A stretch of DNA of 64,000 nt from Desulfosudis oleivorans (GTDB taxonomy: Bacteria; Desulfobacterota; Desulfobacteria; Desulfobacterales; SURF-7), in the NCBI GenBank assembly GCA_020723325.1, contig DYJD01000007.1:62001-126000 (forward strand). Reading direction: 5' to 3'. Shown here piece after piece: positions 21,598-54,818 of this stretch. Made by a program: the position numbers and the translations under genes. The notes under the pieces were generated by a model. The model ran no database searches. It had not been told where the DNA came from and saw nothing but the letters and a program-made list of their open reading frames with translations. Within the stretch, counting starts at the first letter, position 1, and each line of letters opens with the position of its first letter.

Positions 21598-21672
21598 GTA
21601 GATAAAGCCAAACCCTGAGCGATCAGGGGACGGAAAGCCACGGATCTCTCCGAGACAGCCGGGTCGCCTTGA
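21598..21672 (+). ncRNA. GEMM-I class (cyclic dinucleotide) riboswitch
   Basis: The conserved parts are present in order: gccaaacc, a hairpin ccctga-gcga-tcaggg with a GNRA tetraloop, ggacggaaagccacgg (the tetraloop receptor and conserved core), then gacagccgggtcgcc. This is the GEMM-I aptamer architecture that binds cyclic di-GMP, with a Geobacter subgroup binding cGAMP. The ligand cannot be assigned safely by eye. A downstream gcgcccggctgt (about 21683-21694) can pair with acagccggg of the aptamer and could form the alternative structure. It lies 164 bases before the cytochrome start. Confidence 0.82.
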
Positions 21673-21835
21673 AAACGAAAGAGCGCCCGGCTGTTCCATT
21701 TGGGATCAGGGGCGAGAATTTAGGCTTCAATAGTTAGGAGGTGAGAAAAAAGTCTTAATCAGGGCAATACCACTGGCGAATTTTCTAAATGAAGAAAACA
21801 CTCGATCCCCAATTTGACGAAGAAAGGAGTATAGT

Positions 21836-22480
21836 ATGAAACAACCCAAATGGATTATGTTGCTGACGGCAACGCTGGTTATCGGCTCAGCATCAATTGT
21901 TTTTGCCGGAATTACCGGGTCAGATCATGATTTCAGCTCTGCTACCTGGTCCTCCGGCCAGATTTGTAAACCCTGTCATACCCCTCACCATGCCATGAGC
22001 GTGGCGGACGGCCCTTTGTGGAACCACACTGAAACCACCGCCACTTACCAAACCTATCCGGGCGGTGGAACCATGAATGCAACGCCCGGCAACCCCAGCG
22101 GCGTATCCAAGCTTTGTCTGTCCTGCCATGACGGCACGGTGGCCGTGGATGCCATGGCTGGCGGCCCCGGCTCTGGAATCCCGGCCGGCCGAATCGGCGG
22201 CAACGGCCTCATCGGAACCGATCTGAGACAAACCCATCCGATTTCTTTCGACTACACGGCTGCTTTGGCTACTGCTGATGGAGAGTTGGCAAATCCAACA
22301 ACGGCTTCCTCCGGTGTTACCGCCAGCGGAACCATAGCCACGGACATGCTTTTCGGCACAAGCAACAATAAATTTGAATGCGCATCCTGCCATGATGTTC
22401 ACAATGCGTATAACCAAAGCTATTTGCTGCTGAAAAGCAATGCAGGCTCGGCCTTGTGTTTGACTTGTCACCTTAAATAA
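21836..22480 (+). CDS. Secreted tetrahaem cytochrome c
   Basis: The 214-residue precursor has a clear signal peptide ending VFA and four CXXCH motifs (CKPCH, CLSCH, CASCH, CLTCH). It has the ITGSDHDFSS start, the PLWNH block, KLCLSCHDGTVAVD, and ends SALCLTCHLK. It is paralogous to 22576-23229 and 2609-3250. An excellent Shine-Dalgarno (aaaggag) precedes the ATG. Control by a sigma54 promoter and a GEMM riboswitch suggests an abundant, strongly regulated surface protein. Its haem number and size recall OmcE-type nanowire subunits; I rate this as a hypothesis. Confidence 0.88.
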   Translation: MKQPKWIMLLTATLVIGSASIVFAGITGSDHDFSSATWSSGQICKPCHTPHHAMSVADGPLWNHTETTATYQTYPGGGTMNATPGNPSGVSKLCLSCHDGTVAVDAMAGGPGSGIPAGRIGGNGLIGTDLRQTHPISFDYTAALATADGELANPTTASSGVTASGTIATDMLFGTSNNKFECASCHDVHNAYNQSYLLLKSNAGSALCLTCHLK

Positions 22481-38633: not shown

Positions 38634-40613
38634 TCAATTAATAACGACGCGAGGGGTGGGCATTGCAATCTGATATTTTTTTAATTTTATATACAAGGTG
38701 CTGCGACTGATGCCCAGTTGCTGAGCCGCCTGCTTCTTATTCCAAGTGCAGGCCTGCAATATTTCCATTAACAAGCGTTTTTCATTTTCAAGAATAGTGC
38801 TGTGGGCTGGTCCTGCCAGCAGGGCTGCTTGCCTGGAAAGGCCGGTGGGAAGATGTGATATTTCAATTTTTTCGCCTTTGGCGATGACTACGGCGTGTTC
38901 GATGCTGTTTTCCAGTTCACGTACATTGCCGGGCCAATGATGCTCCAGCAAACAACGCATGGCGTCGGAACTGAAGCCACGCACTTCCAGTTTTTGTTCG
39001 GCCGAGAATTTCTGCAAAAAATGCCGCGCCAGCAAGGGGATATCATTGCGCCTGGTTTTCAGGGCGGGCAAATGGATGGGGATTACATTCAACCGATAAT
39101 AAAGATCTTCCCGAAAATGGCCGCTCTTGATTTCCTGGATCAGATCCTTATTGGTGGCGGCCAGAATGCGGACATCCACCGAAAGGGTTTGCTCTCCACC
39201 CACCCTTTCGAACTGATGGGTTTGCAGCACCCGCAGCAATTTGATCTGAGCTGAAGGGGAAATTTCACCGATTTCGTCCAGGAAGACCGTGCCGCCGTGG
39301 GCTTGCTCAAAACGCCCTATTTTCTGGCGGATTGCGCCGGTGAAGGCCCCTTTTTCATAGCCGAACAATTCGCTTTCCAAAAGGGTTTCCGGGTAGGCGG
39401 AACAGTTGATGATGATGAAAGGATTGTTTTTACGCGGGCTTTGATGGTGAATGGCCCGGGCGACTAGTTCCTTGCCGGTGCCGCTTTCCCCTTGAATCAG
39501 AACCGAAGCATCGCTGGGAGCGATGTCCTTGATCACTTTATAAATCAGTTGCATCTTGTGATCTCTGCCGATAATACCGCGGAATCCATCTGTAAGATCA
39601 ATGGGATTAAATAATTCACGCAGTTCTTCTTCATGGAGTACTGCCTTCATAATGGCACCGGCGGCTTGCTCTAAAATCAGCGACACCTTTTCCATGGTTT
39701 TTTCAGGAGAACGATTGTCTGTAGAAAAGGCGGCCACAAGAGCGCCGCATAACTGATTTTGATGATGAATCGGGATAACAGTTTGCCGGCCATTGGCCGG
39801 GAAAGTCACTGGAAGCAGCGGCGCGGCAATGGTGATACCATCCGGCTTTAGGGTTTTTCCCATTTCCCGAAGCCGAGTCTGGGTAGTATGAACCAATTCC
39901 GGATCAGCAATGTGGACGATATTTTTCCCGGAAATGGAAAATATGGAACTGCCATCGCTGTGAAATAAAACAAGCAGCACATGTTCCGTTTCCAAAATGG
40001 CGCGAAATTCCTTGAGCAGGTACGGGCCGAGACTATCCAAGCCTTTCCGCTCATCCGCCTGTTTGATAATTTTGTAAAAAGCCTGAATTTCCTTATGGGT
40101 TTGGCGCAACTCCGCTTCCATGCACCGGCGATCGGTGATGTCATTGACCATTTCCAGACGCGCAATTCTACCATCCCACCAAGAGACCGTCTGGGCATGG
40201 ACAGTATACCAGCGTTCATTAATGTTTTTCTGGAATACCCAGGCACGCTCTCCCGCCTCAGGGGCATTGGGCTTGCATAGTTTTGCATTTGAACAAATAT
40301 CACATGAGCCGGCTCGGCCGTTGTGAAGCGCCTGCCAGCATCGCTGCCCGACTACATCCCCGAACTGATCCCATGCGTGTTTGTTTGCAAAAAGGATTTC
40401 GCAGGTATCCATGTCGGAAACAAATACGCCTGCATCCAGTCCGTCCAGAATGCCGAGCAATCGCTTATGCGCGGCTTTGGATTCCGAATCTTTCAGCGCC
40501 GCCTTTGCTTTCAATTTTTGAATATACATCAGGGAAACGATGCCGGTGAAAGCAACAACGAACAACTGGGTTAGAAGTAGAATCGGGTTCATTTTTTTCA
40601 TCATCCCAATCAT
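38634..40613 (-). CDS. PAS-GAF sigma54 activator with membrane anchor
   Basis: The 659-residue protein has one N-terminal membrane helix ([20 protein letters not shown]), a PAS domain ([16 protein letters not shown]), a GAF-like domain, an AAA+ domain ([22 protein letters not shown]) and a Fis helix-turn-helix. It is like 33804-36728 without the periplasmic Cache part. Its ATG overlaps the stop of the NHL gene (ATGA), so the true start is 40613 and the longer frame to 41015 is not coding. As last gene of the 26-haem/16-haem operon it probably activates its own operon. Confidence 0.88.
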
Positions 40614-41533
40614 AGGGAAACGGTGAACATCTGGATACGGTTGTTGGACGTATCGGCGATGAATATTTGGTCCTTCTTGTTGATACATATTTGCGAAGGA
40701 TGGTTCAGAAAACCTTCTTTCCAGCCCATGCCGGACTGGCGTCCGAGGAATGATCCATCCGGTCCGATAAGGATGAGGCTCCCGCCGTTGCGATCGATCA
40801 CATATATCCGCCCTTTGGCATCCAAAGCCAGACAGGTGGGAAAGCGCACATATTCTTTCAGGCTTTCCGTTAAGGGCGCAAACTGATCCGAACCTGGCTT
40901 GGCGGCAAACAGCCTGGCATGGGTGCTGTCCACCAGCATGATATCCCCCTTGGGGCTGACGGCGATGTCGGAAATAAAGCCGTAGGTTTTGGGAAAGGCG
41001 AGCTGCCTGGTGCACTCGCCGGACGGCTTGAGAACAATTACGCGTTCGTTGAGGATATCCACGATATAGACATGGTCATTGGCATCCAGGGCAAAACTGC
41101 GTGGAACAACCGTGGCGGCGGATATATTTCCAGTGGGATTGATATAGCCCTTGAAGGCTCCGTCGGCGGTCATGCAGATGATCCGGCGTTTTTTCCCGTC
41201 CAAAGCAAAAATGTCACCCTGTGAATTCAGGTGGACTTTAATCGGGTAAAGCAATTCGGGAATTTGAATTTCGGTCGGCGCGCTTTCCAGTTTTTCATCC
41301 TGAAGCGCATACCGCAGCAATCGTCCGTTTTCGGAATCCGCCACGATCAGCACCGAACCGTCGGAACTGGCGACGCCTTCCGGATGTTTAAGCCCGGCCT
41401 CCTTGTCATCGGAATATATGGAAAGCACATGCTTGATTTTCATATCTTCGCCGCTGGTGGCTCCCATGGGCAGAAACAGCCAGGTCCCAAGGATGGTCAG
41501 GAACGATAGAATCAGCGGTAGTAGATTGCGCAT
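40610..41533 (-). CDS. Secreted NHL-repeat beta-propeller protein
   Basis: The 307-residue protein has a signal peptide (LSFLTILGTWLFLPMGATSG) and NHL-type repeats (VADSENGRLLRY, LNSQGDIFALDGKKRRIICM, VDSTHARLFAA, IDRNGGSLILI, IADTSNNRIQMF). It is coded three bases after the 16-haem cytochrome gene and overlaps the next gene. It probably binds or orders the large cytochromes of the operon. Confidence 0.85.
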   Translation of the reverse strand: MRNLLPLILSFLTILGTWLFLPMGATSGEDMKIKHVLSIYSDDKEAGLKHPEGVASSDGSVLIVADSENGRLLRYALQDEKLESAPTEIQIPELLYPIKVHLNSQGDIFALDGKKRRIICMTADGAFKGYINPTGNISAATVVPRSFALDANDHVYIVDILNERVIVLKPSGECTRQLAFPKTYGFISDIAVSPKGDIMLVDSTHARLFAAKPGSDQFAPLTESLKEYVRFPTCLALDAKGRIYVIDRNGGSLILIGPDGSFLGRQSGMGWKEGFLNHPSQICINKKDQIFIADTSNNRIQMFTVSL

Positions 41534-42855: not shown

Positions 42856-44949
42856 TTATTCCGCTGTATGACATTCTTTGCAGGCTTTTTCTGCAAAAGG
42901 CTTGTGGATCCGCTCCTTGAAAAATTTGGGATGCCGGGAAACATGGGGTGTATGACACTTCCGGCAGTCCAGAATTCTGACATCTATCCGTAAATGCGCA
43001 TCACTGAAGGCTTTTGTTTGAACATCGTGGCAGGCCTGACAAAGCGGCTGAATGGGTTTGGCCATCAAGGCCTGTTCCTCGGAAAAATGCGGTTTGTGGC
43101 AGGTCCGGCATTTATTCAGCTCCGACTGGGCGTGGATATAGAGCTTTTTATCCGCGCCTGCAAGAGATTTACTGCCGTCTGAGCCGGTGGGTGTCTCCAT
43201 GCTTTGGGCGGCCGGGGCCTCTTTTTGCTCCATTTGCGCTTTCAAATCCTTATGGCAGGCCAAACAAAGGTCCGGGTAGTCCGTCAGCAACAGATCGTTG
43301 AAAGTGGATTTATGGGGGGAGTGGCATTCCGTGCATTCGCCTTTCACATAGGGGGCGTGCCGACTTTTCAGGTCCGCGGTTTTGATGCCGGGATCCGTTC
43401 CATGGCAGGAAAAGCACAAGAAACCTTGTTTGTTTTTGATCATGCCCTGGACGTTGCTGCCGTGGACTTCGTGACATTTGAGGCATTGGCCGGCGTTGAA
43501 GACCTTGTGATTTGAACCGATGGTCTGGGGCTTCATCAAATCCTCATGGCATTTCGCGCAAAGCTGCGAACCCTCCGGATCGGCCAGCAGGAAATTTTTC
43601 CGTTCCGAACCATGGGAGCGATGACAGGCACTGCAATTACCCTCGGACACCGGCTTGTGGGTCGACGCTTTGGTGAAGCGTTGCTCCGCATCAAAATGGC
43701 ATTTATAACAGACGGTGTCCATCTTGCCTTTCAACATGTCCTTGTGGTTCGAACCATGGGCGTCGTGGCAGGCCGTGCAGTTATTCTCGGCAAAGGGCTT
43801 ATGGGGCGCGCCGGCTTTGATGATTTCCTTGGTCTTGCCGTGGCAGGGCAGGCACAGTTCTTCGGTTTTTGTGCGCAGGAGTTTTGGGTTACCCGCGCTG
43901 TGGCTGCCATGGCAGGTGAGACAGCCTTTGCCTTCCTGGACCGGTTTGTGGGCATTGGCCATTTTTACGCCGCGCTGGGCATGGCAGGTGTTACAAAGCT
44001 GGTTGCCTTTTTTGACCAGCAGTTCCGGGTTTTCAGAGGCATGGGGATTGTGGCAGGCGACACATTGACCTTTGGTAAAAGGTGCATGTTCCATGCTCCC
44101 CAAGGCCTTCAGCTCATTGCCTTTATGGCACTCAAGACATAACTCCTGATCCTTTCGCAGGACCTGAAATGGCGCTGCGGAACCAGGGCTGTTGTGGCAC
44201 TTTTCGCATTCCACCTTGGCCACGACTTTATGGACGCTGGTTTTCAGCAACCTGGGCTGCGAAGAGGAATGGGGATTGTGACAAGCCTTGCAATCCTTCT
44301 GTTCCACCGGGTAGCCCCCATGGGCTTTTTTAAAGCCAGCCTGCTTGCTGTCATGGCAGGCGGCGCAGAGCTGGGCTTCTTTTTGCCGCAGCAGATTGGC
44401 CTGACCGGCTCCGTGCGCTTCATGACATTCCTTGCATTCCTTTTTCTCCAAGGCTTTATGCACGGTCTTTTGGGTGAAATCATTTTTATTGTGGCATTGG
44501 AAACAGAGTTCGCGGCCTTCCTGCTTCAGAAGTTTGGCGGTTTGGGCGGCATGGGGATTGTGGCAACTGGTGCATTTGCCTTTATTCAGGGCCGAATGCA
44601 TCATGGTTTGGTTCAGGCCGATTTTTTCTTTTTCATGGCAGGAGAGGCAAAGCTGGTTTGTCTCCTTTTTCAGAATCAGCTTGGGTATTTTTCCATGCCG
44701 CAGATGACAGTCCTCGCATTTTTTCTCTTTCACCATGGCATGGATGTTTTTCATGGAAAAATATTTTTCCGAAAACGGCTTGTGACAATCCAGGCAGTTT
44801 TTGCTCGCTAAAGTGCGTGTTTGTTTGGCCGAGGAGGATGCACACGCCGAAAGATACAGCAGCAGTCCGCAGACGATCAGGCAAAGCCCGAATCCGATGC
44901 AACCAGATTTTACCAGTAGTCTATTCACCGCGTCACGCATATCCGTCAA
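42856..44949 (-). CDS. 26-haem cytochrome c lipoprotein
   Basis: The 697-residue protein has a lipobox after a hydrophobic segment (CLIVCGLLLYLSAC) and 26 CXXCH motifs at about 25-residue spacing, in alternating types CxxCHNPH/CxxCHEAHG and LCxxCH. The regular repeat (HKP-x(3-6)-CxxCH-xxHGS-x-N) indicates growth by internal duplication. A spacer without haem (about residues 560-605, EAPAAQSMETPTGSDGSKS) divides the last four haems from the rest. Lipid anchoring and size suggest an outer-membrane-linked electron store or wire. It starts nine bases after the parvulin stop. Confidence 0.9.
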   Translation of the reverse strand: MTDMRDAVNRLLVKSGCIGFGLCLIVCGLLLYLSACASSSAKQTRTLASKNCLDCHKPFSEKYFSMKNIHAMVKEKKCEDCHLRHGKIPKLILKKETNQLCLSCHEKEKIGLNQTMMHSALNKGKCTSCHNPHAAQTAKLLKQEGRELCFQCHNKNDFTQKTVHKALEKKECKECHEAHGAGQANLLRQKEAQLCAACHDSKQAGFKKAHGGYPVEQKDCKACHNPHSSSQPRLLKTSVHKVVAKVECEKCHNSPGSAAPFQVLRKDQELCLECHKGNELKALGSMEHAPFTKGQCVACHNPHASENPELLVKKGNQLCNTCHAQRGVKMANAHKPVQEGKGCLTCHGSHSAGNPKLLRTKTEELCLPCHGKTKEIIKAGAPHKPFAENNCTACHDAHGSNHKDMLKGKMDTVCYKCHFDAEQRFTKASTHKPVSEGNCSACHRSHGSERKNFLLADPEGSQLCAKCHEDLMKPQTIGSNHKVFNAGQCLKCHEVHGSNVQGMIKNKQGFLCFSCHGTDPGIKTADLKSRHAPYVKGECTECHSPHKSTFNDLLLTDYPDLCLACHKDLKAQMEQKEAPAAQSMETPTGSDGSKSLAGADKKLYIHAQSELNKCRTCHKPHFSEEQALMAKPIQPLCQACHDVQTKAFSDAHLRIDVRILDCRKCHTPHVSRHPKFFKERIHKPFAEKACKECHTAE

Positions 44950-44958
44950 AAAAGGATG

Positions 44959-46626
44959 TTAGTGTTTGAGATCTGATCCATATATGACCACCGGGTAGTG
45001 TTCTTTCAGCTTATCCGCCCAGTCCTCGATGGCCTTTTTGACTTTTTCCTTAAAAACAGCTTCCTTGATTTTCTGCTGAACACTCTCAAACGACTGCGGG
45101 CTGGGAGAAACCACCTGGGTGATATACAACACCTGATGGCCGCCCTTATCGTTTTCATAAAGCCTGTAATTACCGGACTTGGCATCCGCAACCAATTTTT
45201 GGACATCCTGCGGCAGGCTGCTCAGTGTCAGCAATTGCCCGTCAAATTGAAAAGCCTTGGGGTCCTTGTCCAAAAGCCCTTCCGCGTGGGCGCTCAGCCA
45301 GGTGAAATCCGTGCCCTTGACCAATTTATCAAAGGTCTTCCGGGTATTTTCCTTATTGTTGAAGGACAGGCTTTTGATCCGCAGCATCTGGGGACCTGTA
45401 TACGACCCGAGATTGGCGTCGTAATAGCTCTTCAGCTCAGCCTGATTCAAGGTTATTTCCGGCACAATCACCTTGTCGATGAACATTCCGAAAAGGAGGG
45501 AATTTTCATAGGCCTTGATCCTGTCGCTAAACTTCCTGGTCTTATCCATCCCCTTGCCGGCGGCTTCCAGAAAAAACACCTTTTGCTGCAAGGCGTCTTC
45601 TACAATATCGTGCTTCTTGCTGTTGACTCTTTTGTCTTCAATGGGTTTTTCAATACCGTGGTAAAATTTGGCCTTTAAGGCCTTGGCCAAGTCACCGACC
45701 GTATAATCGTCATCGCCTTTGATCTGGGCGATCACGCGCTTGTCTTCCAATAATTTCTCGAAGCCGGGCGTCTTGCTTTCAAAATCCACGGCCTCTAGTA
45801 ATTCTGAATTCAGGGTGACATATTTTTTTTTCAATTCCTGAAAATAGTCTTGCACACGCTGCAGTTTTTTCTCGTTGAGGGCTTGTGTCTGAGCGGCCTT
45901 CTTCGCCTCTTGATCCTCTTTTTCCGGGTACCGGACCCCATCCAGCTTAAAAATGATGAATTTCTGCTTCTCCAGCACCACCATGGGACTGACAGCACCG
46001 ATTTCCATCTTGGCAACCAGTTTGGCGATGGGGGCGGTCAGGTCTTTGTTTTTGATATGATCGCCCTGCTCCTTGCCTTTTGCAATTCCAGCTTTAACGG
46101 CCTTGGCAAGGACAGTTTTGAAGTCAGCATTGCTCTGGAGTTCGGTTTGAATTTTTTTGGCATCCTCCTCTTTTTCGAATTCCATGGAGGTAATCTGCCA
46201 TTCCTTGACGCTTTCCTTATAGATGCGCTCCACATCCGCAGCATCGGCAACCATGTCCTTGACTTCCGCTTCCAATAGCTGCTCCATCATGGCTTGCTTG
46301 GATTCCTTGGTCACCATGTTTTTCATTTCCGGCAAGTCTGCAAACCCCATGCTCCTGGCTTCAAGGCCGATGAGCCGGGTGTTCACCAGGCGATCCATAA
46401 TCGTCGTGAAGTCGATCCGGCCGGCTTTGTTCCCCTCGCTGACCCGGGAATGGGTCCCGGCAATGGCCTCGTTGAATTCGCGCAACGTGATGGGATCCTC
46501 ATTGACGGTGGCCACAATGGATTCACCATCCACCATGGGCAGTTTGGGGTTTGAAGGAGCTGCTGCTGCCTGGTTCAGGAACAGCAGAGCTACGGACCAT
46601 ACTATTGATAAGGATGTTTTTTTCAT
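44959..46626 (-). CDS. Periplasmic PpiD/SurA-like parvulin isomerase
   Basis: The 555-residue protein has a signal peptide, a SurA/PpiD-like N-terminal region (VATVNEDPITLREFNEAI), and two stretches that look like rotamase or rotamase-derived domains (about residues 145-255 and 400-520; the second has MLRIKSLSFNN and GNYRLYENDKGGHQVLYITQV). It is the first gene of the operon with the 26- and 16-haem cytochromes, so it is probably a dedicated folding factor for them or for an exported partner. The start is at the signal peptide. Confidence 0.83.
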   Translation of the reverse strand: MKKTSLSIVWSVALLFLNQAAAAPSNPKLPMVDGESIVATVNEDPITLREFNEAIAGTHSRVSEGNKAGRIDFTTIMDRLVNTRLIGLEARSMGFADLPEMKNMVTKESKQAMMEQLLEAEVKDMVADAADVERIYKESVKEWQITSMEFEKEEDAKKIQTELQSNADFKTVLAKAVKAGIAKGKEQGDHIKNKDLTAPIAKLVAKMEIGAVSPMVVLEKQKFIIFKLDGVRYPEKEDQEAKKAAQTQALNEKKLQRVQDYFQELKKKYVTLNSELLEAVDFESKTPGFEKLLEDKRVIAQIKGDDDYTVGDLAKALKAKFYHGIEKPIEDKRVNSKKHDIVEDALQQKVFFLEAAGKGMDKTRKFSDRIKAYENSLLFGMFIDKVIVPEITLNQAELKSYYDANLGSYTGPQMLRIKSLSFNNKENTRKTFDKLVKGTDFTWLSAHAEGLLDKDPKAFQFDGQLLTLSSLPQDVQKLVADAKSGNYRLYENDKGGHQVLYITQVVSPSPQSFESVQQKIKEAVFKEKVKKAIEDWADKLKEHYPVVIYGSDLKH

Positions 46627-46974: not shown

Positions 46975-47970
46975 ATGTTCACTGAAAATCCCAGACAATT
47001 ATTTTCAAGCGCATGGGTCTTGACCGTGGCCGGCCTGATTATCGGGCTGGGAGTTGTTTTCACCGCCGGCGGCTGGAACACAGCCGAAGCATCCATTGAA
47101 GTATCCTATGCTTACCATCTTTCCAATTTCAGCGGCACAGTGCCGTACAACTGGGTCAATCTGTTTGTGGACGAACTCCGCAATGAAATCTACGTCCTTG
47201 ATCCCAGAGCAGGCGACATCCGAGTTTTCAACGAAAAGGGCATGGAGGTTTTCAGCTTCGGCGACGACGGCAGCCTGGACAGTGTGATGGATATAACTGT
47301 TGAAAAAGGCGGTGACATACTCGTTCTCTCCAAAACCAATACCGGCTTTTCCATTCTTCGATGCAATTTCAGAGGGGAAGTCACCGGGAAAATCCTCCTT
47401 GGCAACCTGCCGGATTGGTTGTCGAATTTTTCTCCCACGCGTCTGATCTGTCGCAACGAAAGAATCTTCCTGCTGGATACTGCCGCCATGAAGATCGCCG
47501 TAACCGCGATGGACGGTATTTTTCAAAACGGCTTTGAGCTCATGGCCCTTCTTGAAATCCCGCCGGATAAGCAAATCGGCACAGAGGTGAGCGGGTTTTA
47601 TGTGGATGGGAACGGCAACATGCTGTTCACCGTTCCAGTGCTTTTCTCAGCCTATATCCTTTCTCCGGAAGGCCGGCTCGCTGGTTTCGGCACCCCCGGC
47701 AGTTCACCCGGCCGCTTCGGCGTGGTGAGCGGCATCGCCGCGGATGACCAGGGGAACATTTTCGTGGCGGATCGCCTGCGGAGTGTGGTCATGATTTTTG
47801 ACAGGAATTTTCAATTTCTGAAGGAATTCGGTTATCGCGGCGTGCTGCCGTCCAATTTGATTTCACCATCAAATCTATCCTTGGACGGCAAGGGCAAGCT
47901 GTATGTGAGTCAACTGAAAAGCAGGGGCATCGGCGTCTTTAAAATTCAACAAGCGGCTCCTGATCTTTAA
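46975..47970 (+). CDS. Secreted NHL-type beta-propeller protein
   Basis: The 331-residue protein has an N-terminal signal segment (VLTVAGLIIGLGVVFTAGG) and propeller repeats (FVDELRNEIYVLDPRAGDIRVF, VEKGGDILVLSKT, ADDQGNIFVADRLRSVVMIF, LDGKGKLYVSQLKSRGIGVF). It opens the operon of the OmcS-like cytochrome. NHL proteins next to filament cytochromes are also known in Geobacter clusters, so an assembly or anchoring role is plausible. aaagga lies before the ATG. Confidence 0.82.
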   Translation: MFTENPRQLFSSAWVLTVAGLIIGLGVVFTAGGWNTAEASIEVSYAYHLSNFSGTVPYNWVNLFVDELRNEIYVLDPRAGDIRVFNEKGMEVFSFGDDGSLDSVMDITVEKGGDILVLSKTNTGFSILRCNFRGEVTGKILLGNLPDWLSNFSPTRLICRNERIFLLDTAAMKIAVTAMDGIFQNGFELMALLEIPPDKQIGTEVSGFYVDGNGNMLFTVPVLFSAYILSPEGRLAGFGTPGSSPGRFGVVSGIAADDQGNIFVADRLRSVVMIFDRNFQFLKEFGYRGVLPSNLISPSNLSLDGKGKLYVSQLKSRGIGVFKIQQAAPDL

Positions 47971-48060
47971 GCAGACTGACTCAATCAGAAGGGGGGTGGT
48001 TGAGACATACCTGGCATTTGCGTTTGAGAGGCTGCCGGTCCATCCGGCATAACAAAAAAT

Positions 48061-48168
48061 ATCCTCCGAAAATGGTAAACCCATTGAGAGATGGGGACAC
48101 AAAACCGACAGATCCTACTGATACGAAACCGAGGATGGCTGGGTTGCCGGAGATTACAACTGGAGGAT
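48061..48168 (+). ncRNA. GEMM-I class riboswitch controlling the OmcS-like gene
   Basis: The elements in order are: ggtaaacc, the hairpin cccat-tgagag-atggg (a GAGA tetraloop closed by T.G), ggacacaaaaccgac, then ggctgggttgcc. The closing stem P1 is CTCCG (48064-48068) with CGGAG (48148-48152). ATCCTCC (48061-48067), which contains the 5-prime side of P1, is also exactly complementary to the Shine-Dalgarno GGAGGAT at 48162-48168. Ligand binding should hold P1 and free the ribosome site, giving a translational on-switch. The core deviates somewhat from consensus (acacaaaacc for acgcaaagcc). Confidence 0.75.
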
Positions 48169-48172
48169 TAAA

Positions 48173-49321
48173 ATGAAAGCAATGAAATTAAGTGTTTTTG
48201 CCATGGCTGCAATGCTGGCGATTTTCGGGATCAGCAGCACATCCCATGCGCTCCATGACGGCGGTGTTGCCCGTTGTGAAGCCTGTCATACCATGCACAA
48301 CTCCCAGGGCAATGCGGGCATGACCGTTATTGCGGGTCACGAACCCGGCGGCCGCCTGACCAAAGGCTCCGATCCCAGCTCCACTTGTCTGAACTGCCAT
48401 CAGGGCGGCGGCAACGGCTACCATGTTTTCAGCACGGACGGCTCCAACCTCACCCCCGGCGGGGATTTTTACTGGCTGACCAAGACCTTTAGCTGGGTGT
48501 CCCGCGGCACCACACAATACAGCACCGGTGAAAGCCATGGTCACAGTGTTGTGGCCGCCGATTTCGGACTTGCCGCTGATGCCACCCTGACCACGGCTCC
48601 CGGCGGAACTTACAACGCCGGCTCCCTGGGATGCACCAGCTGCCATGATCCCCATGGCAACAAAAACGGCGCCGGCGCCATCGAAGGTTCCGGTTCTTAC
48701 GGGGTTGCCGGGCCGACCCGCGGCAATTTCCGACTCCTCGGCGATATCGGCTACCAAGCCGGCAGCAGCGTAACCTTCACCTCCCAAGTGCCGGTGGCGA
48801 GATCCTTCAGCTCCAACGCCGAAACCAATGCCAACCATGCGGATTACGGCCAGGGCATGTCGGAATGGTGCCGAAACTGCCATGGCAATTTCAGCGGCAG
48901 CCTGCGTCACCCGGCCGGGAATGACGCGCACCTGAGCAATGATTCCATCGCCGACCATTACAATGCCTATGTGGCCAGCGGCAATCTCACCGGCACCCAG
49001 GCCACCGCCTATCTGGCCCTAGTGCCCTTTGAAAGAGGCACCGCCGATGCGACCACGCTGTCGACCACCAGCACGGTAGGTCCCAATGGAACTTCCAATG
49101 TCATGTGCCTCACCTGCCACCGGGCCCATGCTTCGGCTTTCCCGGATGCCGGCCGCTGGTATTTCACCGCTACCTTCTTAAGCACCCAATCCCATCCGCT
49201 GGCTACCGACACCGGCGTCACCGGCAACGATGTGCTGAACAGCTACTACAACCGGGATATGACCGCCACCTTCGGCGCTTATCAGAGAAGCCTTTGCAAC
49301 AAATGCCATTTGCAAGACTAA
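48173..49321 (+). CDS. omcS: OmcS-like hexahaem cytochrome (filament subunit)
   Basis: The 382-residue protein has a signal peptide ending SHA and six CXXCH motifs (CEACH, CLNCH, CTSCH, CRNCH, CLTCH, CNKCH). It matches my memory of Geobacter sulfurreducens OmcS nearly end to end: GGVA.CE.CHTMHNS, TPGGDF, GHSVVA.D, YGQGMSEWC.NCH, LRHPAGN, LTGTQA.AYL.L.PFE.GTAD, TSNV.CL.CHRAHAS.F, and AYQR.LCNKCH. OmcS polymerises into extracellular nanowires with stacked haems. Spare histidines for bis-His ligation are present (GHSVVAAD, SNADH-type segments). It is preceded by a GEMM riboswitch and followed by a terminator, then barrel and propeller genes. Confidence 0.88.
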   Translation: MKAMKLSVFAMAAMLAIFGISSTSHALHDGGVARCEACHTMHNSQGNAGMTVIAGHEPGGRLTKGSDPSSTCLNCHQGGGNGYHVFSTDGSNLTPGGDFYWLTKTFSWVSRGTTQYSTGESHGHSVVAADFGLAADATLTTAPGGTYNAGSLGCTSCHDPHGNKNGAGAIEGSGSYGVAGPTRGNFRLLGDIGYQAGSSVTFTSQVPVARSFSSNAETNANHADYGQGMSEWCRNCHGNFSGSLRHPAGNDAHLSNDSIADHYNAYVASGNLTGTQATAYLALVPFERGTADATTLSTTSTVGPNGTSNVMCLTCHRAHASAFPDAGRWYFTATFLSTQSHPLATDTGVTGNDVLNSYYNRDMTATFGAYQRSLCNKCHLQD

Positions 49322-49348: not shown

Positions 49349-49379
49349 AAGGCTGACGGGCAACCGTCAGCCTTTTATT
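49349..49379 (+). terminator. Intrinsic terminator after the OmcS-like gene
   Basis: AAGGCTGACGG pairs with CCGTCAGCCTT around a gcaa loop and is followed by ttattg. Read-through would give lower expression of the downstream propeller and barrel genes than of the cytochrome. Confidence 0.85.
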
Positions 49380-49504
49380 GTTACCGCATTGCCAATTACC
49401 GCAGCTTGTGATAGCTGTTCATCCAATATCCAAGACAACCAACCTCTTCTAAGACTGATCCGGATAGGATGTCGGCGGAGAGATTTGCAAAGGTCCGGCC
49501 TGGA

Positions 49505-50911
49505 ATGAAGCCGAAAAAAATATTCTCCATTCTTTTGGGATGCATGTTATTGAGCGCTTGTTTTCCACAACCCGCCTTCCAGACTGTCCACAGCCAGGAA
49601 GGCGGCAGGCTGCTGATCTATCTCCAGCCCATGACCTCTCAAGGCACAAAGCTGCGCTGTATCCTGGACTCCATTTGGGCTAAAAAAGAAGATGGGACGA
49701 AAATCCCGCTGACCTTGTTGTTCCATGAATTAAACGAGGATCTGCCCGGCCGGCAGAAACGCCTGGCCTTCACAAGTGTTCCCCACGGCGCCTTCTCCGG
49801 CATTGCAGTTCACATCAAGAGCGCATCCGTGCAAGGCGAAGAGGGCGAGGCCGCCCTGCTGGTGCCGGATGAACCCGTTAACGTGAATCTTGCCTTTGAT
49901 GTTTCGGATCGTCAAGTGACAGCCCTGTTCCTGACCCTTGATACCGTCGGCAGCATCACCAGCGCTGTTAAATTCGCCCCGCGGTTCGGATTGGAGCCGG
50001 CCAAAAAGATCCTCACCAATCTCACGGGCTATGTGAGCAACAGCGAAGAAAATTATGTGTCGGTGTTCAACAAAAAGACCATGCAGGTGGTGGGTGCCAT
50101 CGCCACCGGCCGGGAACCCAAGGGCCTGGCCCTGGATCAGCGCCGGGGAAAGCTCTATATCGCCGCAGCCGCGGATGATGCCATCGACATCGTGGATGTC
50201 TTTGAAAGGAAGGTGGTGGAAAGAATCAGTCTGCATTTCGGCGATGGGCCGATGGAGCTGGCCCTGAGCCCGGACAAGCAGACAATGCTGGCCGTCAACA
50301 GCGCCTCCAATACCATAAGCGTCATCGACACCGCCGCCCTGCTTGAAACCGCCCGGATTCCGGTGGGGGAAAGACCGGTCTCGGCCGTGATCCATCCCTC
50401 GGGCTTAAAGGCCTTTGTGATGAACTCCTTTTCCAATTCCATATCCGTGATTGATCTGACCCGCAATGAAACTACCGCCACCCTGCCGGTGGACGGCCGA
50501 CCTGAAAGGGCCGCTTTCAACCAGCGCGGTACGGAACTCTATGTCATCGGTCCCAACTCCCCACGGCTCACCATACTGGATCCAGCACGATTGCGGGTGG
50601 TCAAGACGATTTTCGTGGGCATGGGAAACGTTGCCATTCTTGCAGACAACAAGACGGATCTTGTATTGGTGGGCTGCGAAGGTCTAAGCGGCATATCCGT
50701 CATATCATCCACGGCCACCATGTATATTGATCAGATCCAAATTGAAGCCCCACCGGCTCACATGGCCATGGACAATGAGGAAAACATGCTTTTTATGGTG
50801 CTGCCCTCCCGGAAAACCCTTCAAAAAATGAATCCCACCAGTAAAAAAAGCCTTGCAGAAATCGACGTGGGCCAAGGAGCATATGCCGTTGCGGTCATGG
50901 GCGAGCGATAA
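49505..50911 (+). CDS. YVTN beta-propeller lipoprotein
   Basis: The 468-residue protein has a lipobox (SILLGCMLLSAC), a beta-rich N-terminal domain (about residues 20-175, RLLIYLQPMTSQGTKLRC; SVPHGAFSGIAVHIKSASV), and a C-terminal YVTN-type propeller (YVSNSEENYVSVF, LYIAAAADDAIDIVDV, MLAVNSASNTISVIDT, AFVMNSFSNSISVIDL). It is probably anchored at the outer membrane next to the barrel encoded downstream. The start at 49505 is chosen for the signal peptide; 49469 is possible. Confidence 0.78.
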   Translation: MKPKKIFSILLGCMLLSACFPQPAFQTVHSQEGGRLLIYLQPMTSQGTKLRCILDSIWAKKEDGTKIPLTLLFHELNEDLPGRQKRLAFTSVPHGAFSGIAVHIKSASVQGEEGEAALLVPDEPVNVNLAFDVSDRQVTALFLTLDTVGSITSAVKFAPRFGLEPAKKILTNLTGYVSNSEENYVSVFNKKTMQVVGAIATGREPKGLALDQRRGKLYIAAAADDAIDIVDVFERKVVERISLHFGDGPMELALSPDKQTMLAVNSASNTISVIDTAALLETARIPVGERPVSAVIHPSGLKAFVMNSFSNSISVIDLTRNETTATLPVDGRPERAAFNQRGTELYVIGPNSPRLTILDPARLRVVKTIFVGMGNVAILADNKTDLVLVGCEGLSGISVISSTATMYIDQIQIEAPPAHMAMDNEENMLFMVLPSRKTLQKMNPTSKKSLAEIDVGQGAYAVAVMGER

Positions 50912-50921
50912 GAGCCGGCAT

Positions 50922-53084
50922 ATGCGCTTGTGCTTTACCAGGCTTTTCATGAGCGGCCTACTCGGGCTGGTTTTGCTGCCGACCCTTGCGGCCGCGGATG
51001 GAATCACCTTGAATAACGAGTTCAACTACACGACTTCCGACAGCACAACCACGTTTAAAGATACCAACGAGACCCTAAGCGGCAGCAGTGAAACCTTCAA
51101 ACAGCGTTACAATCTTGACCTGTTCCAAAGCATTTATCCCTATCTGACATTTAAAGGCGGGGCTTTATATCAGGGCACGGATTCAACTTTCCTGTCCGCA
51201 GATACGGAAGCCGTGCGCCGGGAAAAGCTGATCCGGCCCTTTGCGGATTTGAATCTGGAAAGCCCGCTGGTAAAAGCCGGCGTCGGCGTTCGCAAGACCC
51301 AAATCGATGAAAACGCCACCGGCAATCCGGACACCACCAATGAACGCGATGAGTTCAACAGCTTTTTGGGATGGCGGCCCCTGGATCTGCCGGAAGTCAA
51401 TCTGCGCGTCGGCAATATTCACTCGTACAATAATCTCAACACCCTGGATTCCGTGTACAGGCAAGTCAACTTTGGCACCAAATATACCGCCTGGCGGGAT
51501 TTACGGCTGAATTATTTTCTGAACCGCGCCGAAACAAGGGATGACATCCACGCTTCGGATATTGTGGAGCAGGCCCAGAATGCCATGGCGGATTATTCCC
51601 ATTCTTTCTGGAACAACCGGCTGGCGGTGAGCACCGGTTACCGGGTGCGGCATTATGCCACGTCCGTTACCGGAACGGCGAGTTTGGAATTGCCCGTATC
51701 CCGTTCCCAAGGTTTCTCCGCCTTGGATAACAACCCCCTACAAAACGATTTTTCCACCAATAACCCATTGATCGACGGGGATAGGACCGTCTCCACCGGC
51801 CTGGATATCGGTTTGGGGGGCGATGAAGGCAAGTTGACCCAGATGGTGATCGATTTCGGCTTTCCGGTTTCGGTTGATACCATTCATTTATGGGTGGATC
51901 GGCGGCTGCCGGCCGGCATCGTCAATGCTTTTTCCTGGTCCATCTATATCAGTCCGGGAACCTTAGCCCCCACGGAATGGTCGCTTTGGGCCGTAAAATC
52001 TCCGGCCGCCTTTGCCCCTTTGGACAACCGCTTTGAATTCTCCTTCCCGGCGGCGACCACCCGTTATATCAAGGTTGTCACCAGGCCGATCTCCATTGCC
52101 GTGCCCAATACCGTTGAGTTCCCCAATATCTTTGTAACGGAAATGGAGACCTTCAGCGCCCGAATGGGTACGGCCGGTTTGAATCAGAATACCAGCCTTG
52201 ACCAAGATTATAACCTGGATCTGAACAGCCGGGTCACGGACCGGACTTCACTCGGGTATCATTTTTTCTTCAGGACCCGTAAAGATGATTTTCTACTCCA
52301 GAAGCGCACGGAATATTCCAACGGTATTTTCGTGAACCATACTTTTAATGAGATGTTCGTGGGCAATACCAGTTTGCTGCGCACCGAAAGCCAGAATGCC
52401 GGTAAAGACAATTTAAACTATACGTTTGCCGCCTCCTTGCGGGCCAATTATCTTGAAACCCTGGATCAGACCTTGACTTACAGCAGCTTGCGGGAAACCG
52501 ATGAGGAAGAGAATGTTGAAAGAAATTCTTTGATATTGAGAACAAATGCGAAATTATATAAAGGTGTGGATGCGTTTCTGGACAATGGTTACAGCATCAA
52601 CAAAACTGTTGTGGATCAAAACCAGGAAAGCGTGCTGGTGCGCATGGGGACCAATATCGTGCCCAATGAAAAACTGACCATGAATACCAACTACACCTTG
52701 AACAGAATCGTAAGAACCGAGATTTTGGATCGAAAAAAAGTCGATTCCCAGTTGGATTTCCAGGTCTTTCTCACCCCCCTGAGTGTGCTGTCGTTGACGG
52801 CCAGGGTAAGCCTGGTGGAGCGGGACAACAAATCCACCACTTACCAAAATTTTTCCGTGAATTGGCTGCCCTTTCCAGAAGGGGCCCTGCAATTCTTCGT
52901 GGTTTATACCGAAGACCTGACGCCGGAGGACAACAAGAAAGAACGTACCCTGAATCCCGGTTTGCTATGGAAAATCAGCCGGCATGTGAATCTCACCACG
53001 GCTTACAACCATACCCGCAGTGAGACAAATACAACGACGACGGAAGCCAACAGCCTGAATGCGCTTCTGCGCCTGATATTTTAA
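50922..53084 (+). CDS. Outer-membrane beta-barrel with discoidin-like insert
   Basis: The 720-residue protein has a signal peptide (cut near LAAA-DG) and many amphipathic strands typical of a large barrel (NNEFNYTTSDSTTTF, RYNLDLFQSIYPYLTFKGG, NLRVGNIHSYNNL, SLGYHFFFRT, NLTTAYNHTRSETN, ending LNALLRLIF with a terminal Phe). A soluble segment at about residues 290-415 (VIDFGFPVSVDTIHLWVD, WSIYISPG, TTRYIKVVTRP) resembles an F5/8-type C (discoidin) carbohydrate-binding domain. It is a second candidate porin for electron conduits or for export of the OmcS-like protein. The ATG at 50922 follows the previous stop by ten bases. Confidence 0.78.
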   Translation: MRLCFTRLFMSGLLGLVLLPTLAAADGITLNNEFNYTTSDSTTTFKDTNETLSGSSETFKQRYNLDLFQSIYPYLTFKGGALYQGTDSTFLSADTEAVRREKLIRPFADLNLESPLVKAGVGVRKTQIDENATGNPDTTNERDEFNSFLGWRPLDLPEVNLRVGNIHSYNNLNTLDSVYRQVNFGTKYTAWRDLRLNYFLNRAETRDDIHASDIVEQAQNAMADYSHSFWNNRLAVSTGYRVRHYATSVTGTASLELPVSRSQGFSALDNNPLQNDFSTNNPLIDGDRTVSTGLDIGLGGDEGKLTQMVIDFGFPVSVDTIHLWVDRRLPAGIVNAFSWSIYISPGTLAPTEWSLWAVKSPAAFAPLDNRFEFSFPAATTRYIKVVTRPISIAVPNTVEFPNIFVTEMETFSARMGTAGLNQNTSLDQDYNLDLNSRVTDRTSLGYHFFFRTRKDDFLLQKRTEYSNGIFVNHTFNEMFVGNTSLLRTESQNAGKDNLNYTFAASLRANYLETLDQTLTYSSLRETDEEENVERNSLILRTNAKLYKGVDAFLDNGYSINKTVVDQNQESVLVRMGTNIVPNEKLTMNTNYTLNRIVRTEILDRKKVDSQLDFQVFLTPLSVLSLTARVSLVERDNKSTTYQNFSVNWLPFPEGALQFFVVYTEDLTPEDNKKERTLNPGLLWKISRHVNLTTAYNHTRSETNTTTTEANSLNALLRLIF

Positions 53085-53110
53085 TGGACAACTGCAAGGA
53101 AAACCGAAAA

Positions 53111-53704
53111 ATGAACCCCATCTTTTTACGTCATCGATTTAGTGGAATCATGTTGTTTTGCGCGCTGGTCTTTTACAACGCCTGCGGCCTGCGCCATCTT
53201 CCCGATGTTTATCGGGATGCGGAAATGGACTTTGCCGCCATCCGCACAGTGGCGGTCATGCCCTTCAACAATCTCACCACCGATAAAATGGCGGGGATTC
53301 GGGTGCGCGAAATTTTTTCCAACAAACTTTTGGCCACCGGCGCCGTCTATGTGCTGCCTTCGGGAGAAGTAGCCCGCGGGGTCAACAAAGCCGGGGTCAC
53401 GGACGCCACCATCCCTTCCGCGGAAGAGATCGTTAAAATCGCGGCCATTATCAAAGCCGACGCCATTATCACCGGGGTGGTCAATGAATACGGCGTGGTC
53501 AAATCCGGGGCCACGTCGGCCAATGTGATTTCCATCAGTCTTCAAATGCTGGATGTCCAGACCCGTAAAATCGTTTGGACTGCCGGAGCCACCAAAGGCG
53601 GCATCACCATGTTGGACCGCCTGTTCGGCGGCGGCGGCGACCCCATGACCGATGTCACCGAGGCGGCGGTTGATGAAACCATTCACAAGCTTTTTAATGA
53701 TTAA
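53111..53704 (+). CDS. CsgG/LpoB-like lipoprotein
   Basis: The 197-residue protein has a lipobox-like site (ALVFYNACG) and the alpha/beta pattern of the CsgG/LpoB/DUF799 group (RTVAVMPFNNLTTDKMAGIRVREIFSNKL, ADAIITGVVNEYGVVKS, SISLQMLDVQTRKIVWTAGAT). Members form periplasmic lipoproteins that help outer-membrane assembly or secretion pores. It directly follows the barrel gene (the longest frame starts in its stop codon, taATG); the ATG at 53111 with aagga upstream is preferred. It overlaps the next gene by eight bases. Confidence 0.72.
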   Translation: MNPIFLRHRFSGIMLFCALVFYNACGLRHLPDVYRDAEMDFAAIRTVAVMPFNNLTTDKMAGIRVREIFSNKLLATGAVYVLPSGEVARGVNKAGVTDATIPSAEEIVKIAAIIKADAIITGVVNEYGVVKSGATSANVISISLQMLDVQTRKIVWTAGATKGGITMLDRLFGGGGDPMTDVTEAAVDETIHKLFND

Positions 53705-54818
53705 ACGACTCGTCATCCTTGGCAGCATCCTGGTTCTGTTTGGTGGGTGCAAGACCCAAGCTGCATCTCCGCCGGATCACGGCGGTGACTTGTCGGGGGC
53801 CTATCCGGTTGTCGCGGTTCTGCCCATCCACAATCTCAGCGGCGCCAAGGCGCCTTTGGATGAAATCCGGCAGACCCTGGAAAGGGCTCTTACGCAGAAC
53901 GGCGTCCCCACCCTGGATTCCGCCGGCCTGCAGCAGTTCATCGTGAACCACCGTATCCGCCACATCGGGGGGATGGAACATCAGACCGCAAGAAGTTTGC
54001 ACACAGAAACCGGCGCCCAGGCTGTTTTTCAAACCACTCTGGAAATTTATCATGATTTCCCGATACCCAAACTCGCTATACTGGCCAGGGTGATGCGCAT
54101 CACCGGTGCTGAAGTCGAAACCATCTGGATGGACGGTGTCGGCCTTGCCGGCGATGATGCGCCGGGCTTGCTGGACCTAGGCGTAATCAAAGACCCCCAG
54201 GTGCTTTTGCAGAAAAGTGCGGAACAATTGATCCGCTCTTTTACCCAACAAATAAAGGCATGCGGCCGGCGAGAAGCTGATCAGGGTATTTCCGCTGATT
54301 TTCAACCCCGGTCGGTGTTCGGCGGCGCCGGGTTTTTGCCGGATAAATCCATTCGAGTGGCGGTGACGCCTTTTTTCAATTTCAGTGAACGAAAATATGC
54401 CGGAGATCTCATGGCCCTGCATTTTGTTCGGCAACTTACGGCCCATGACAACATCATCGTGAGCGAGCCGGCGGATGTGCGCAAAGCGTTTCTGCAAGGG
54501 CGGCTTATCATGAACGACGGCATTTCCCTGACCAATGCCAAAACCCTTTTCCGAAAATTAGGGGTTGATTATATTCTTTCCGGCAGTGTGCTGGATTATG
54601 AGGACGAGCAAGGCGGGACCGGCAAGTCTAAAGTTCATTCTTCAGTGTTTCTGATTGAAAAAAACAGCCTGGCGGTGGTTTGGTCCGCCGACAGCGTCCA
54701 TGATGGGGATGAGAGCGCTTCCTTCTTTTTTGGACTCGGCCGGATGAAAACCGCCCATTCCCTGGCCGCCGCCATGTCCCGGCAGGCGCTGGCAACCATC
54801 TTCCGGCCCGGACCGTAA
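53697..54818 (+). CDS. Lipoprotein with two CsgG/LpoB-like halves
   Basis: The 373-residue protein has a lipobox (VLFGGC) and two similar alpha/beta units. The first starts PVVAVLPIHNLSGAKAPLDEIRQTLERAL and the second IRVAVTPFFNFSERKYAGDLMALHFVRQL, each followed by a strand pair ending in GSVLDY- or VFQTTLEIY-like elements and VVW. It thus looks like a duplicated form of the preceding protein. It may work in assembly or secretion at the outer membrane with the barrel. It is the last gene of the operon and converges with 54830. Confidence 0.68.
   Translation: MIKRLVILGSILVLFGGCKTQAASPPDHGGDLSGAYPVVAVLPIHNLSGAKAPLDEIRQTLERALTQNGVPTLDSAGLQQFIVNHRIRHIGGMEHQTARSLHTETGAQAVFQTTLEIYHDFPIPKLAILARVMRITGAEVETIWMDGVGLAGDDAPGLLDLGVIKDPQVLLQKSAEQLIRSFTQQIKACGRREADQGISADFQPRSVFGGAGFLPDKSIRVAVTPFFNFSERKYAGDLMALHFVRQLTAHDNIIVSEPADVRKAFLQGRLIMNDGISLTNAKTLFRKLGVDYILSGSVLDYEDEQGGTGKSKVHSSVFLIEKNSLAVVWSADSVHDGDESASFFFGLGRMKTAHSLAAAMSRQALATIFRPGP

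What the first reader, a model, noticed from the sequence alone, without database searches (positions are those of the whole stretch)
48061..49321. OmcS-like nanowire gene under a GEMM riboswitch with a Shine-Dalgarno switch
The hexahaem protein keeps the OmcS signature blocks end to end. Its leader has a GEMM-I aptamer whose P1 5-prime strand (ATCCTCC, 48061-48067) is exactly complementary to the ribosome site (GGAGGAT, 48162-48168). Ligand binding would keep P1 and expose the ribosome site, so a cyclic dinucleotide would switch on filament production. A terminator immediately after the gene favours high, separate expression.
Basis: partly seen in the sequence, partly recalled or inferred. 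Interest (0 to 1): 0.82.

Follow-up and report, generated by a model that had tools for sequence, protein, structure and literature searches.

The report
Second-messenger RNA switch controlling nanowire-type cytochrome
In front of a gene for a haem protein related to bacterial 'electric wires' sits a known kind of RNA sensor for the signal c-di-GMP (or its cousin cGAMP); its first strand can also cover the ribosome's landing site, so the signal probably switches protein production on, and the same layout recurs before related genes in other bacteria.

Summary
Rfam's c-di-GMP-I (GEMM-I) model matches 48064-48151 (59.5 bits, gathering score 35). ATCCTCC (48061-48067) is exactly complementary to GGAGGAT (48162-48168). 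The gene (48173-49321) encodes a hexahaem cytochrome whose only PDB match is OmcS. One correction: P1 is CTCCG/CGGAG, so 48061-48063 lie outside P1 and seem to serve only the ribosome-site pairing.

New evidence: of 23 GEMM-I leaders of OmcS-like genes, 19 have the same layout. In 19 of 19, at least 7 nt pair with the ribosome site, with A-U, C-G or G-U at the outermost pair. None of 9 comparable leaders of other genes reached 7. Imposing P1 frees the window's ribosome site from 1% to 93%. This supports a translational ON switch. G at 48074 and no Hypr-type serine among 23 GGDEF domains favour c-di-GMP.

GEMM-I control of omcST is published for Geobacter; I found no ribosome-site platform in the papers searched. 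Filament formation is unproven: a 100/100 branch separates the protein from OmcS, though neighbours match a published eight-gene nanowire-secretion block.

The parts
48034..48057 (+). possible promoter or operator region: GCCGG-N5-CCGGC dyad followed by ATAACAAAAA, largely kept in the nearest relative just upstream of the anti-SD
   Evidence: sequence; L014 alignment; the sigma-70 scan found nothing, so function is open
48061..48067 (+). anti-Shine-Dalgarno strand ATCCTCC; 48061-48063 outside P1, 48064-48067 shared with P1
48064..48068 (+). P1 5' strand CTCCG
   Evidence: sequence; P1 pairing
48064..48151 (+). GEMM-I / c-di-GMP-I riboswitch aptamer (RF01051)
   Evidence: 59.5 bits, gathering 35; own model R1 48062-48152, 92.5 bits (R1 was trained partly on this sequence)
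48074..48074 (+). ligand-selectivity base (position 20 in Vc2 numbering, mapping recalled) = G, the c-di-GMP type
   Evidence: alignment; G/A rule from PMC9481103 passages
48148..48152 (+). P1 3' strand CGGAG
   Evidence: sequence
48162..48168 (+). Shine-Dalgarno GGAGGAT, complementary to 48061-48067
48173..49321 (+). OmcS-like hexahaem c-type cytochrome, 382 aa, signal peptide-like start (by eye)
   Evidence: the only match of its kind in the assembly at E <= 0.001
49349..49374 (+). intrinsic terminator-like hairpin after the gene
46975..47970 (+). NHL-like beta-propeller protein, often found just upstream of OmcS-like genes in the loci compared
   Evidence: (NHL itself below the Pfam cut-off)
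49469..50911 (+). YncE/YVTN-type beta-propeller; block gene 1 (counterpart of GSU2500 inferred from order)
50853..53084 (+). 743-aa protein, perhaps an outer-membrane barrel (impression only; no Pfam or NCBIfam family); block gene 2
53084..53704 (+). GNA1162/LpoB-like lipoprotein; block gene 3
53652..54818 (+). LpoB-like protein; block gene 4
   Evidence: (below Pfam cut-off)
44959..46626 (-). PpiC/SurA-type peptidyl-prolyl isomerase; block gene 5
42856..44949 (-). cytochrome with 26 CxxCH, like the 26-haem GSU2495; block gene 6
   Evidence: GSU2495 from PMC12977616
41537..42958 (-). cytochrome with 16 CxxCH; block gene 7
40610..41533 (-). NHL-repeat protein; block gene 8

Best explanation
The leader is a class I cyclic-dinucleotide riboswitch with a translational ON platform. 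Without ligand, 48061-48067 pairs with the Shine-Dalgarno 48162-48168, enclosing the aptamer, so ribosomes cannot start the cytochrome gene. When c-di-GMP (most likely) binds the three-way junction, P1 (48064-48068/48148-48152) is held closed, its 5' strand is no longer available, and the Shine-Dalgarno is freed. The gene product is a secreted hexahaem cytochrome of the OmcS superfamily, probably handled by the neighbouring maturation/secretion genes. Shown here: the aptamer match, the mutually exclusive pairings, their conservation with changes on both sides, the predicted energy balance, and the gene neighbourhood. Inferred: ligand binding and identity, switching in the cell, secretion, filament formation.
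For: RF01051 at 59.5 bits. 23 GEMM-I leaders of OmcS-like genes: 19 have a ribosome site 6-24 nt after the aptamer, and in 19 of 19 the columns -1 to +5 of the anti-SD strand pair with it. 13 of these 19 had been found by Rfam's own model. Outermost pair: A-U 14, C-G 4, G-U 1; 53 of 200000 shuffles reach 19 of 19 (relatedness ignored). The four C-G cases lie on both sides of the best-supported branch of the protein tree (L013 versus L045, L053, L054). In L116 and L123 the P1 found by script is UCCGA/UCGGA while the SD pairing is kept. SD-paired ensemble favoured over the P1 ensemble by 1.7-7.5 kcal/mol in 17 of 17 leaders computed. The chance that the SD is free rises when P1 is imposed in 19 of 19, in the window from 0.01 to 0.93. 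Only 20 nt separate R1's aptamer end and the start codon, and the scan lists no + strand terminator before the gene. A pattern drawn from these leaders hits 5 of 395 phylum genomes, all 5 at leaders of OmcS-like genes already known here; the pattern read backwards hits none. Ligand: G at 48074; of 23 GGDEF domains 21 have D at the position read as the Hypr position, 1 has N, 1 lacks the motif, none has Ser.
Against: No experiment. R1, which found 6 of the 19 on its own, was trained on such leaders and so leans to them. 4 of the 23 leaders lack the layout (L035, L060, L214, L217). Most OmcS-like loci searched gave no GEMM-I at all (23 leaders from 155 partly overlapping loci), among them L009, L019 and L258, which is 59% identical and in the same order. 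In 2 of 19 leaders the SD pairing with the P1 5' strand is not the main predicted state (L053 0.00, L048 0.13). The window leader's fold is only modestly more stable than shuffles (z -1.74, 10 of 200 as stable). With P1 alone imposed, mean SD accessibility over 19 leaders is 0.49. Energies ignore tertiary contacts and folding during transcription. The Hypr position was assigned from recall, not from an alignment. Start codons in the leaders were chosen by rule, not from annotation.
Confidence: 0.82

Rival explanations
1. Same aptamer and same ON logic, but the natural ligand is cGAMP, or both dinucleotides.
For: The Geobacter omcST riboswitch is reported as sensitive to both (PMC6456294, passage); 5 of the 19 leaders of this layout carry A and 2 carry C at the selectivity base (read); the base is described as a selectivity factor rather than a hard filter (PMC9262584, passage).
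Against: G at 48074; no Hypr-type serine seen in 23 GGDEF domains of this assembly; aptamers with G favoured c-di-GMP in published probing (PMC9481103, passages).
Confidence: 0.15
2. The complementarity is a by-product: ribosome sites are often GGAGG and P1 happens to be CUCCG/CGGAG, so the aptamer acts otherwise (RNA stability, Rho, or not at all).
For: 6% of shuffled 5' segments reach 7 nt; 4 of 27 control leaders with starts beyond 60 nt also reach 7 or 8; all 19 leaders share related genes, so they are not independent.
Against: 19 of 19 versus 0 of 9 controls with near starts; three pairs outside P1 kept in 19 of 19; both-sided changes in two separate parts of the tree.
Confidence: 0.08
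3. A translational OFF switch, as in Vc2: ligand hides the ribosome site.
For: Translational OFF control by a GEMM-I aptamer is described for Vc2 (PMC9262584, passages).
Against: With P1 imposed the window's SD is 0.93 free, so no strong alternative partner appears; the ligand-free state already hides it.
Confidence: 0.06
4. The gene product is a hexahaem secreted cytochrome that does not polymerise, like the OmcS paralogues of unknown function (OmcT, GSU2501, OmcJ).
For: Separated from OmcS by a 100/100 branch; of the G. [quoted passage not shown]
Against: Six candidate distal histidines kept, including the MH next to haem 1; the only OmcS-like match of its assembly, beside the full block.
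Confidence: 0.4

Closest known systems
GEMM-I (c-di-GMP-I / cGAMP) riboswitch upstream of omcST in Geobacter sulfurreducens
   Same: Same aptamer class before an OmcS-superfamily operon, activating; omcST transcripts fall 2-3 fold without the cGAMP cyclase GacA (PMC6456294, passages).
   Different: The Geobacter platforms described in the passages read act through terminators. Here the 5' strand pairs with the ribosome site and no terminator is seen before the gene. The G. sulfurreducens omcS leader was not available to me; the two held full-length homologues nearest to OmcS (L037 71%, L135 70% identity) have the ribosome-site layout.
Vc2, translational GEMM-I riboswitch
   Same: Translational control by a GEMM-I aptamer with P1 as the key element (PMC9262584, passages).
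   Different: Vc2 is an OFF switch; this one is predicted ON, with the SD competing for the P1 5' strand.
pilM GEMM-I riboswitch of Geobacter metallireducens
   Same: ON switch linked to extracellular electron transfer (PMC9262584, passage).
   Different: Acts on transcription.
OmcS (PDB 6EF8/6NEF) filament cytochrome and its paralogues OmcT/GSU2501
   Same: Six CxxCH, six candidate distal His, conserved blocks end to end, and a neighbourhood like the published one.
   Different: 45% identity to OmcS by tblastn (50%), 382 aa with shorter loops, other side of a 100/100 branch; filament not shown.

Membership tests
c-di-GMP-I / GEMM-I riboswitch (RF01051) | covariance-model score at or above the gathering threshold | tested here: met
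   59.5 bits vs 35
c-di-GMP-I / GEMM-I riboswitch (RF01051) | three-way junction with P1, P2, P3 and a GNRA-type P2 loop (features recalled) | tested here: met
   P2 loop GAGA and P2/P3 pairs in the alignment, with a few P3 positions off-consensus; P1 CTCCG/CGGAG
c-di-GMP-I / GEMM-I riboswitch (RF01051) | binds c-di-GMP | not testable with these tools
   needs in-line probing or ITC
cGAMP-selective GEMM-Ib | A instead of G at the selectivity base | tested here: not met
   G at 48074; rule from PMC9481103
translational ON riboswitch with SD competition | SD and P1 compete for one strand, conserved in relatives | tested here: met
   19 of 19 leaders of this layout; 0 of 9 controls with near starts
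translational ON riboswitch with SD competition | ligand raises translation | not testable with these tools
   reporter or toeprint needed
OmcS superfamily (hexahaem) | six CxxCH motifs and homology over the mature length | tested here: met
OmcS superfamily (hexahaem) | all 12 axial ligands histidine, one from the neighbouring subunit (PMC6584659, passages) | tested here: inconclusive
   six His besides the CxxCH ones are kept at OmcS positions (window residues 28, 42, 124, 161, 246, 319), enough for all 12; that they are the ligands is inferred, and which one crosses subunits is recalled
OmcS proper (orthologue) | groups with OmcS in a tree | tested here: not met
   opposite sides of a branch with 100/100 support
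OmcS proper (orthologue) | forms filaments | not testable with these tools
   cryo-EM needed; AlphaFold model too poor to use
eight-gene 'nanowire secretion' block (GSU2500-GSU2493) | all eight genes nearby | tested here: met
   eight window genes match the eight genes downstream of the OmcS-like pair in G678 (L250), 26 CxxCH in both counterparts. Here the block is split into two divergent halves. That the G678 block equals GSU2500-2493 is inferred from position and the 26-haem gene; the Geobacter genes themselves were not compared

The most novel reading that the evidence does not exclude
A dedicated GEMM-I variant whose P1 5' strand doubles as an anti-Shine-Dalgarno controls selected OmcS-type paralogues in several families of the phylum, on both sides of the deepest supported branch of the protein tree, and works with either c-di-GMP or cGAMP. 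It gates filament protein at translation, including for omcS of Geobacter itself, and it marks which paralogue (in one locus, L015, two) is the wire subunit. It would also help explain why omcST showed the smallest transcript effect in the cGAMP work.
Probability: 0.45. Interest if true: 0.68.

Novelty: new variant of a known kind. Interest (0 to 1): 0.56.

Why it matters
Control of cytochrome filaments by cyclic dinucleotides has been read largely from transcript levels (in the papers I saw). If omcS-type genes are gated at translation, RNA-seq understates the control, and the modest transcript effect on omcST (2-3 fold, PMC6456294) needs another look. Leaders of this one layout carry G, A or C at the selectivity base, a natural comparison of ligand preference on one platform. 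The riboswitch could serve as a marker for the wire-forming paralogue, which PMC12977616 says sequence models cannot pick out in other genera.

Tried and rejected
Structure prediction with 21 aligned sequences gave mean pLDDT 42.7 and pTM 0.38; it was not used and no fold search was made. Three key papers are not held (PMC4418906, PMC4732562, PMC4418907), so the published omcS expression platform could not be read. G. sulfurreducens is apparently not among the 277 genomes of the class searched: the best full-length match to OmcS among my loci is 71%. A 16S search for the anti-SD tail found no match in this assembly. A strict regular expression for the aptamer was replaced by a covariance model. 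A first script lost the rows of window and L014 because an alignment file carried the same names; it was repeated correctly. The start codons guessed are wrong for some leaders (for example L013, L126, L190); one search uses the start 2-12 nt after a GGAGG-like site instead. The Rfam 'GGC' and 'UAU' subfamilies that some relatives match were not pursued.

Full report
WHAT IS THERE. The window lies at G000:C76:62001-126000 of a 7.2 Mb assembly. The named locus most like its cytochrome is from a MAG labelled Desulfobacterium sp. (L014, 72%). Rfam reports two riboswitches in the window: RF01051 at 48064-48151 and the GGC variant RF03167 at 21598-21672. The gene after the first, 48173-49321, encodes 382 aa with six CxxCH. 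In the PDB its only listed match up to E 10 is OmcS (1.5e-79). It is the only match of its kind in the assembly. A terminator-like hairpin follows at 49349-49374.

THE PAIRING, READ EXACTLY. The P1 helix is CTCCG (48064-48068) with CGGAG (48148-48152). ATCCTCC (48061-48067) pairs without mismatch with GGAGGAT (48162-48168). Bases 48064-48067 can be in P1 or on the ribosome site, not both at once; bases 48061-48063 have no partner in P1. The nearest relative, L014, keeps both strands while the linker between them changes.

COMPARATIVE TEST. A model built from 14 aptamers found by Rfam (R1) was run over 155 partly overlapping loci (85, 70; fetched, plus the window), giving 34 rows. I set aside copies of the same place (L001, L040, L118, L149, L153, L164, L168, and the truncated L057), the other window aptamer at 21599, and two 21-bit rows (L172, L173). 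That left 23 leaders of OmcS-like genes. Fifteen of the 23 had been found by Rfam's own model, fourteen of them forming the training set of R1; the other eight (L116, L123, L126, L135, L154, L190, L214, L217) come from R1 alone, were not scanned with Rfam, and R1 leans to leaders like its training set. Of the 23, 19 have a Shine-Dalgarno 6-24 nt after the aptamer: 13 of the 15 from Rfam and 6 of the 8 from R1. Of the remaining four, L060 has a strong terminator-like hairpin (14 pairs), L217 one that the scan reports as 5 pairs and that looks longer by eye, and L214 and L035 have none in the scan; L214 has a distant start and L035 no recognisable SD.

In the 19 the strand X-UCCUCC (or a close form) pairs with GGAGGA-Y over at least 7 nt. 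Column by column, positions -1 to +5 pair in 19 of 19; the flanking columns -5, -4, -3, -2, +6 and +7 pair in 3, 3, 3, 5, 8 and 4 of 19. The outermost column -1 shows A-U 14, C-G 4 and G-U 1. Dealing its 3' partners out anew gave 19 of 19 in 53 of 200000 shuffles, mean 12.7; this ignores relatedness. The C-G cases fall in two distant parts of the tree (L013; and L045, L053, L054), so at least two separate changes on both sides are likely. In L116 and L123 the P1 found by script uses other bases (UCCGA/UCGGA), yet the SD pairing is intact.

CONTROLS. Shuffling the 17-nt 5' segment gives a match of 7 or more in 6% of trials, so a single case proves little. Among 59 top-scoring GEMM-I loci of the order and phylum, fetched without regard to OmcS, 36 had a recognisable start within 150 nt. 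Of these, 9 were within 60 nt, and 0 of 9 reached 7 nt. Of the 27 with farther starts, 3 reached 7 and 1 reached 8. These controls are few and biased to high aptamer scores. A sequence pattern drawn from these leaders (this P1 strand plus the aptamer core) occurs in 5 of 395 genomes of the phylum, once each; the five places are the leaders of L036, L053, L054, L047 and the window, all OmcS-like genes. Read backwards it occurs in none. The pattern would miss other aptamer cores, so it shows only that this exact form was not seen before other genes.

HOW COMMON. The switch is not universal: most of the loci searched gave no GEMM-I match, including L009, L019 and L258 (59% identical, same order). 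Loci overlap and many stretches are partial, so no exact share was counted.

ENERGETICS. The predicted ligand-free fold of the window leader pairs 48061-48068 with the SD region (MFE -30.9 kcal/mol, z -1.74, 10 of 200 shuffles as stable). Over 17 leaders, the SD-paired ensemble lies 1.7-7.5 kcal/mol below the P1 ensemble (L116 and L123 were skipped there because of their different P1). Over 19 leaders, imposing P1 raises the chance that the SD is free in every case: from 0.01 to 0.93 in the window, from 0.05 to 0.49 on average, least in L048 (0.57 to 0.67) and L123 (0.03 to 0.11). Two leaders do not show the SD pairing with the P1 5' strand as the main state (L053 0.00, L048 0.13). The energy gap is small compared with what tight ligand binding can pay (general knowledge), which suits a switch.

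LIGAND. The base that separates c-di-GMP (G) from cGAMP (A) (PMC9481103, passages; a selectivity factor rather than a filter, PMC9262584) is G in the window (48074). Reading, it is G in 12, A in 5 and C in 2 of the 19. The assembly has 23 GGDEF matches: 21 have D at the position I read as the one replaced by the Hypr serine (Ser348 of GacA, PMC8835794; the mapping to the GHxxGD motif is recalled), one has N, one lacks the motif, none has S. I conclude c-di-GMP, with cGAMP as a rival.

THE PROTEIN. In an alignment with OmcS and 20 relatives, the six CxxCH and six further histidines at OmcS positions are kept in the window protein. OmcS has 12 histidine ligands, one from the neighbouring subunit (PMC6584659, passages); that the MH beside haem 1 is this one is recalled. 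In a tree of 42 sequences (midpoint root, for drawing only), a branch with 100/100 support puts the window protein with 18 others, among them riboswitch-controlled genes of Malonomonas, L015, L036 and G312, and OmcS with 22 others. OmcS's own supported group (98/94, 6 rows) holds four riboswitch-controlled genes (L037, L050, L048 and the G678 gene) and L137, which has none. Carriers of this switch need 6 changes on the tree, at least 4 forced by supported branches, so the layout is either old and often lost or gained more than once. In the three clusters read in detail (G678, Malonomonas, G312), the OmcS-like gene nearest the NHL gene carries the switch and the one nearest the beta-propeller gave no match. 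In L015 two genes carry it and a third does not.

NEIGHBOURS. A 2026 study ties an eight-gene block downstream of the OmcS-like gene GSU2501 to OmcS maturation and secretion, and names the 26-haem GSU2495 (PMC12977616, passages). In G678 the order is NHL, OmcS-like with GEMM-I, second OmcS-like, beta-propeller, barrel-like protein, GNA1162-like, LpoB-like, PpiC, 26-haem, 15-haem, NHL. Window genes 49469, 50853, 53084, 53652 (+) and 44959, 42856, 41537, 40610 (-) match the last eight; counterparts lie also in the Malonomonas (L251) and G312 (L252) clusters. In the window they form two divergent halves.

AGAINST THE LITERATURE. GEMM-I control of cytochrome, pilus and polysaccharide genes in Geobacter is known. 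omcST transcripts fall 2-3 fold without GacA, omcST is named as the smallest effect in the passage on the esnD deletion, and its riboswitch is said to sense both dinucleotides (PMC6456294, passages). The Geobacter platforms described in passages I read are terminators (PMC6456294; PMC9262584). Vc2 is a translational OFF switch. I found no description of a GEMM-I ON switch acting on the ribosome site of an omcS-type gene in the listings of five full-text searches, which cover open-licence papers only and of which I read passages of a few; three key papers of 2015 could not be read. The finding is therefore filed as a new variant of a known kind: known aptamer, known target family, and a conserved translational platform so far seen here only before these genes.

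Noticed in passing
own genome G000:C78:127168-127512 (-), L084: Four GEMM-I aptamers in tandem before a small protein with a signal-like start. A survey counted 347 doublets and 12 triplets of this class in the passage read (PMC9481103), so a quadruplet would be unusual.
   Followed up: partly
own genome G000:C78:143377-143455 (-), L006/L085: Single GEMM-I before a similar small protein.
   Followed up: no
window 21598-21694 and 21836-22480: GEMM-I-GGC aptamer followed by a perfect hairpin (21655-21663 with 21686-21694, by eye) that uses its 3' part, then a gene with a CxxCH motif: perhaps a second, transcription-type switch, though no clear T-run follows.
   Followed up: partly
   Followed up: partly
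L048:817-906 (+), L135:2842-2928 (-): C at the ligand-selectivity base in two leaders with the ribosome-site platform; ligand preference unknown.
   Followed up: no
window 48034-48057: Inverted repeat GCCGG-N5-CCGGC and ATAACAAAAA largely kept in L014 just before the anti-SD strand; might be promoter or operator, no sigma-70 match.
   Followed up: no
window 50853-53084: 743-aa conserved block protein without a Pfam or NCBIfam match at E <= 0.01, barrel-like by impression only.
   Followed up: partly
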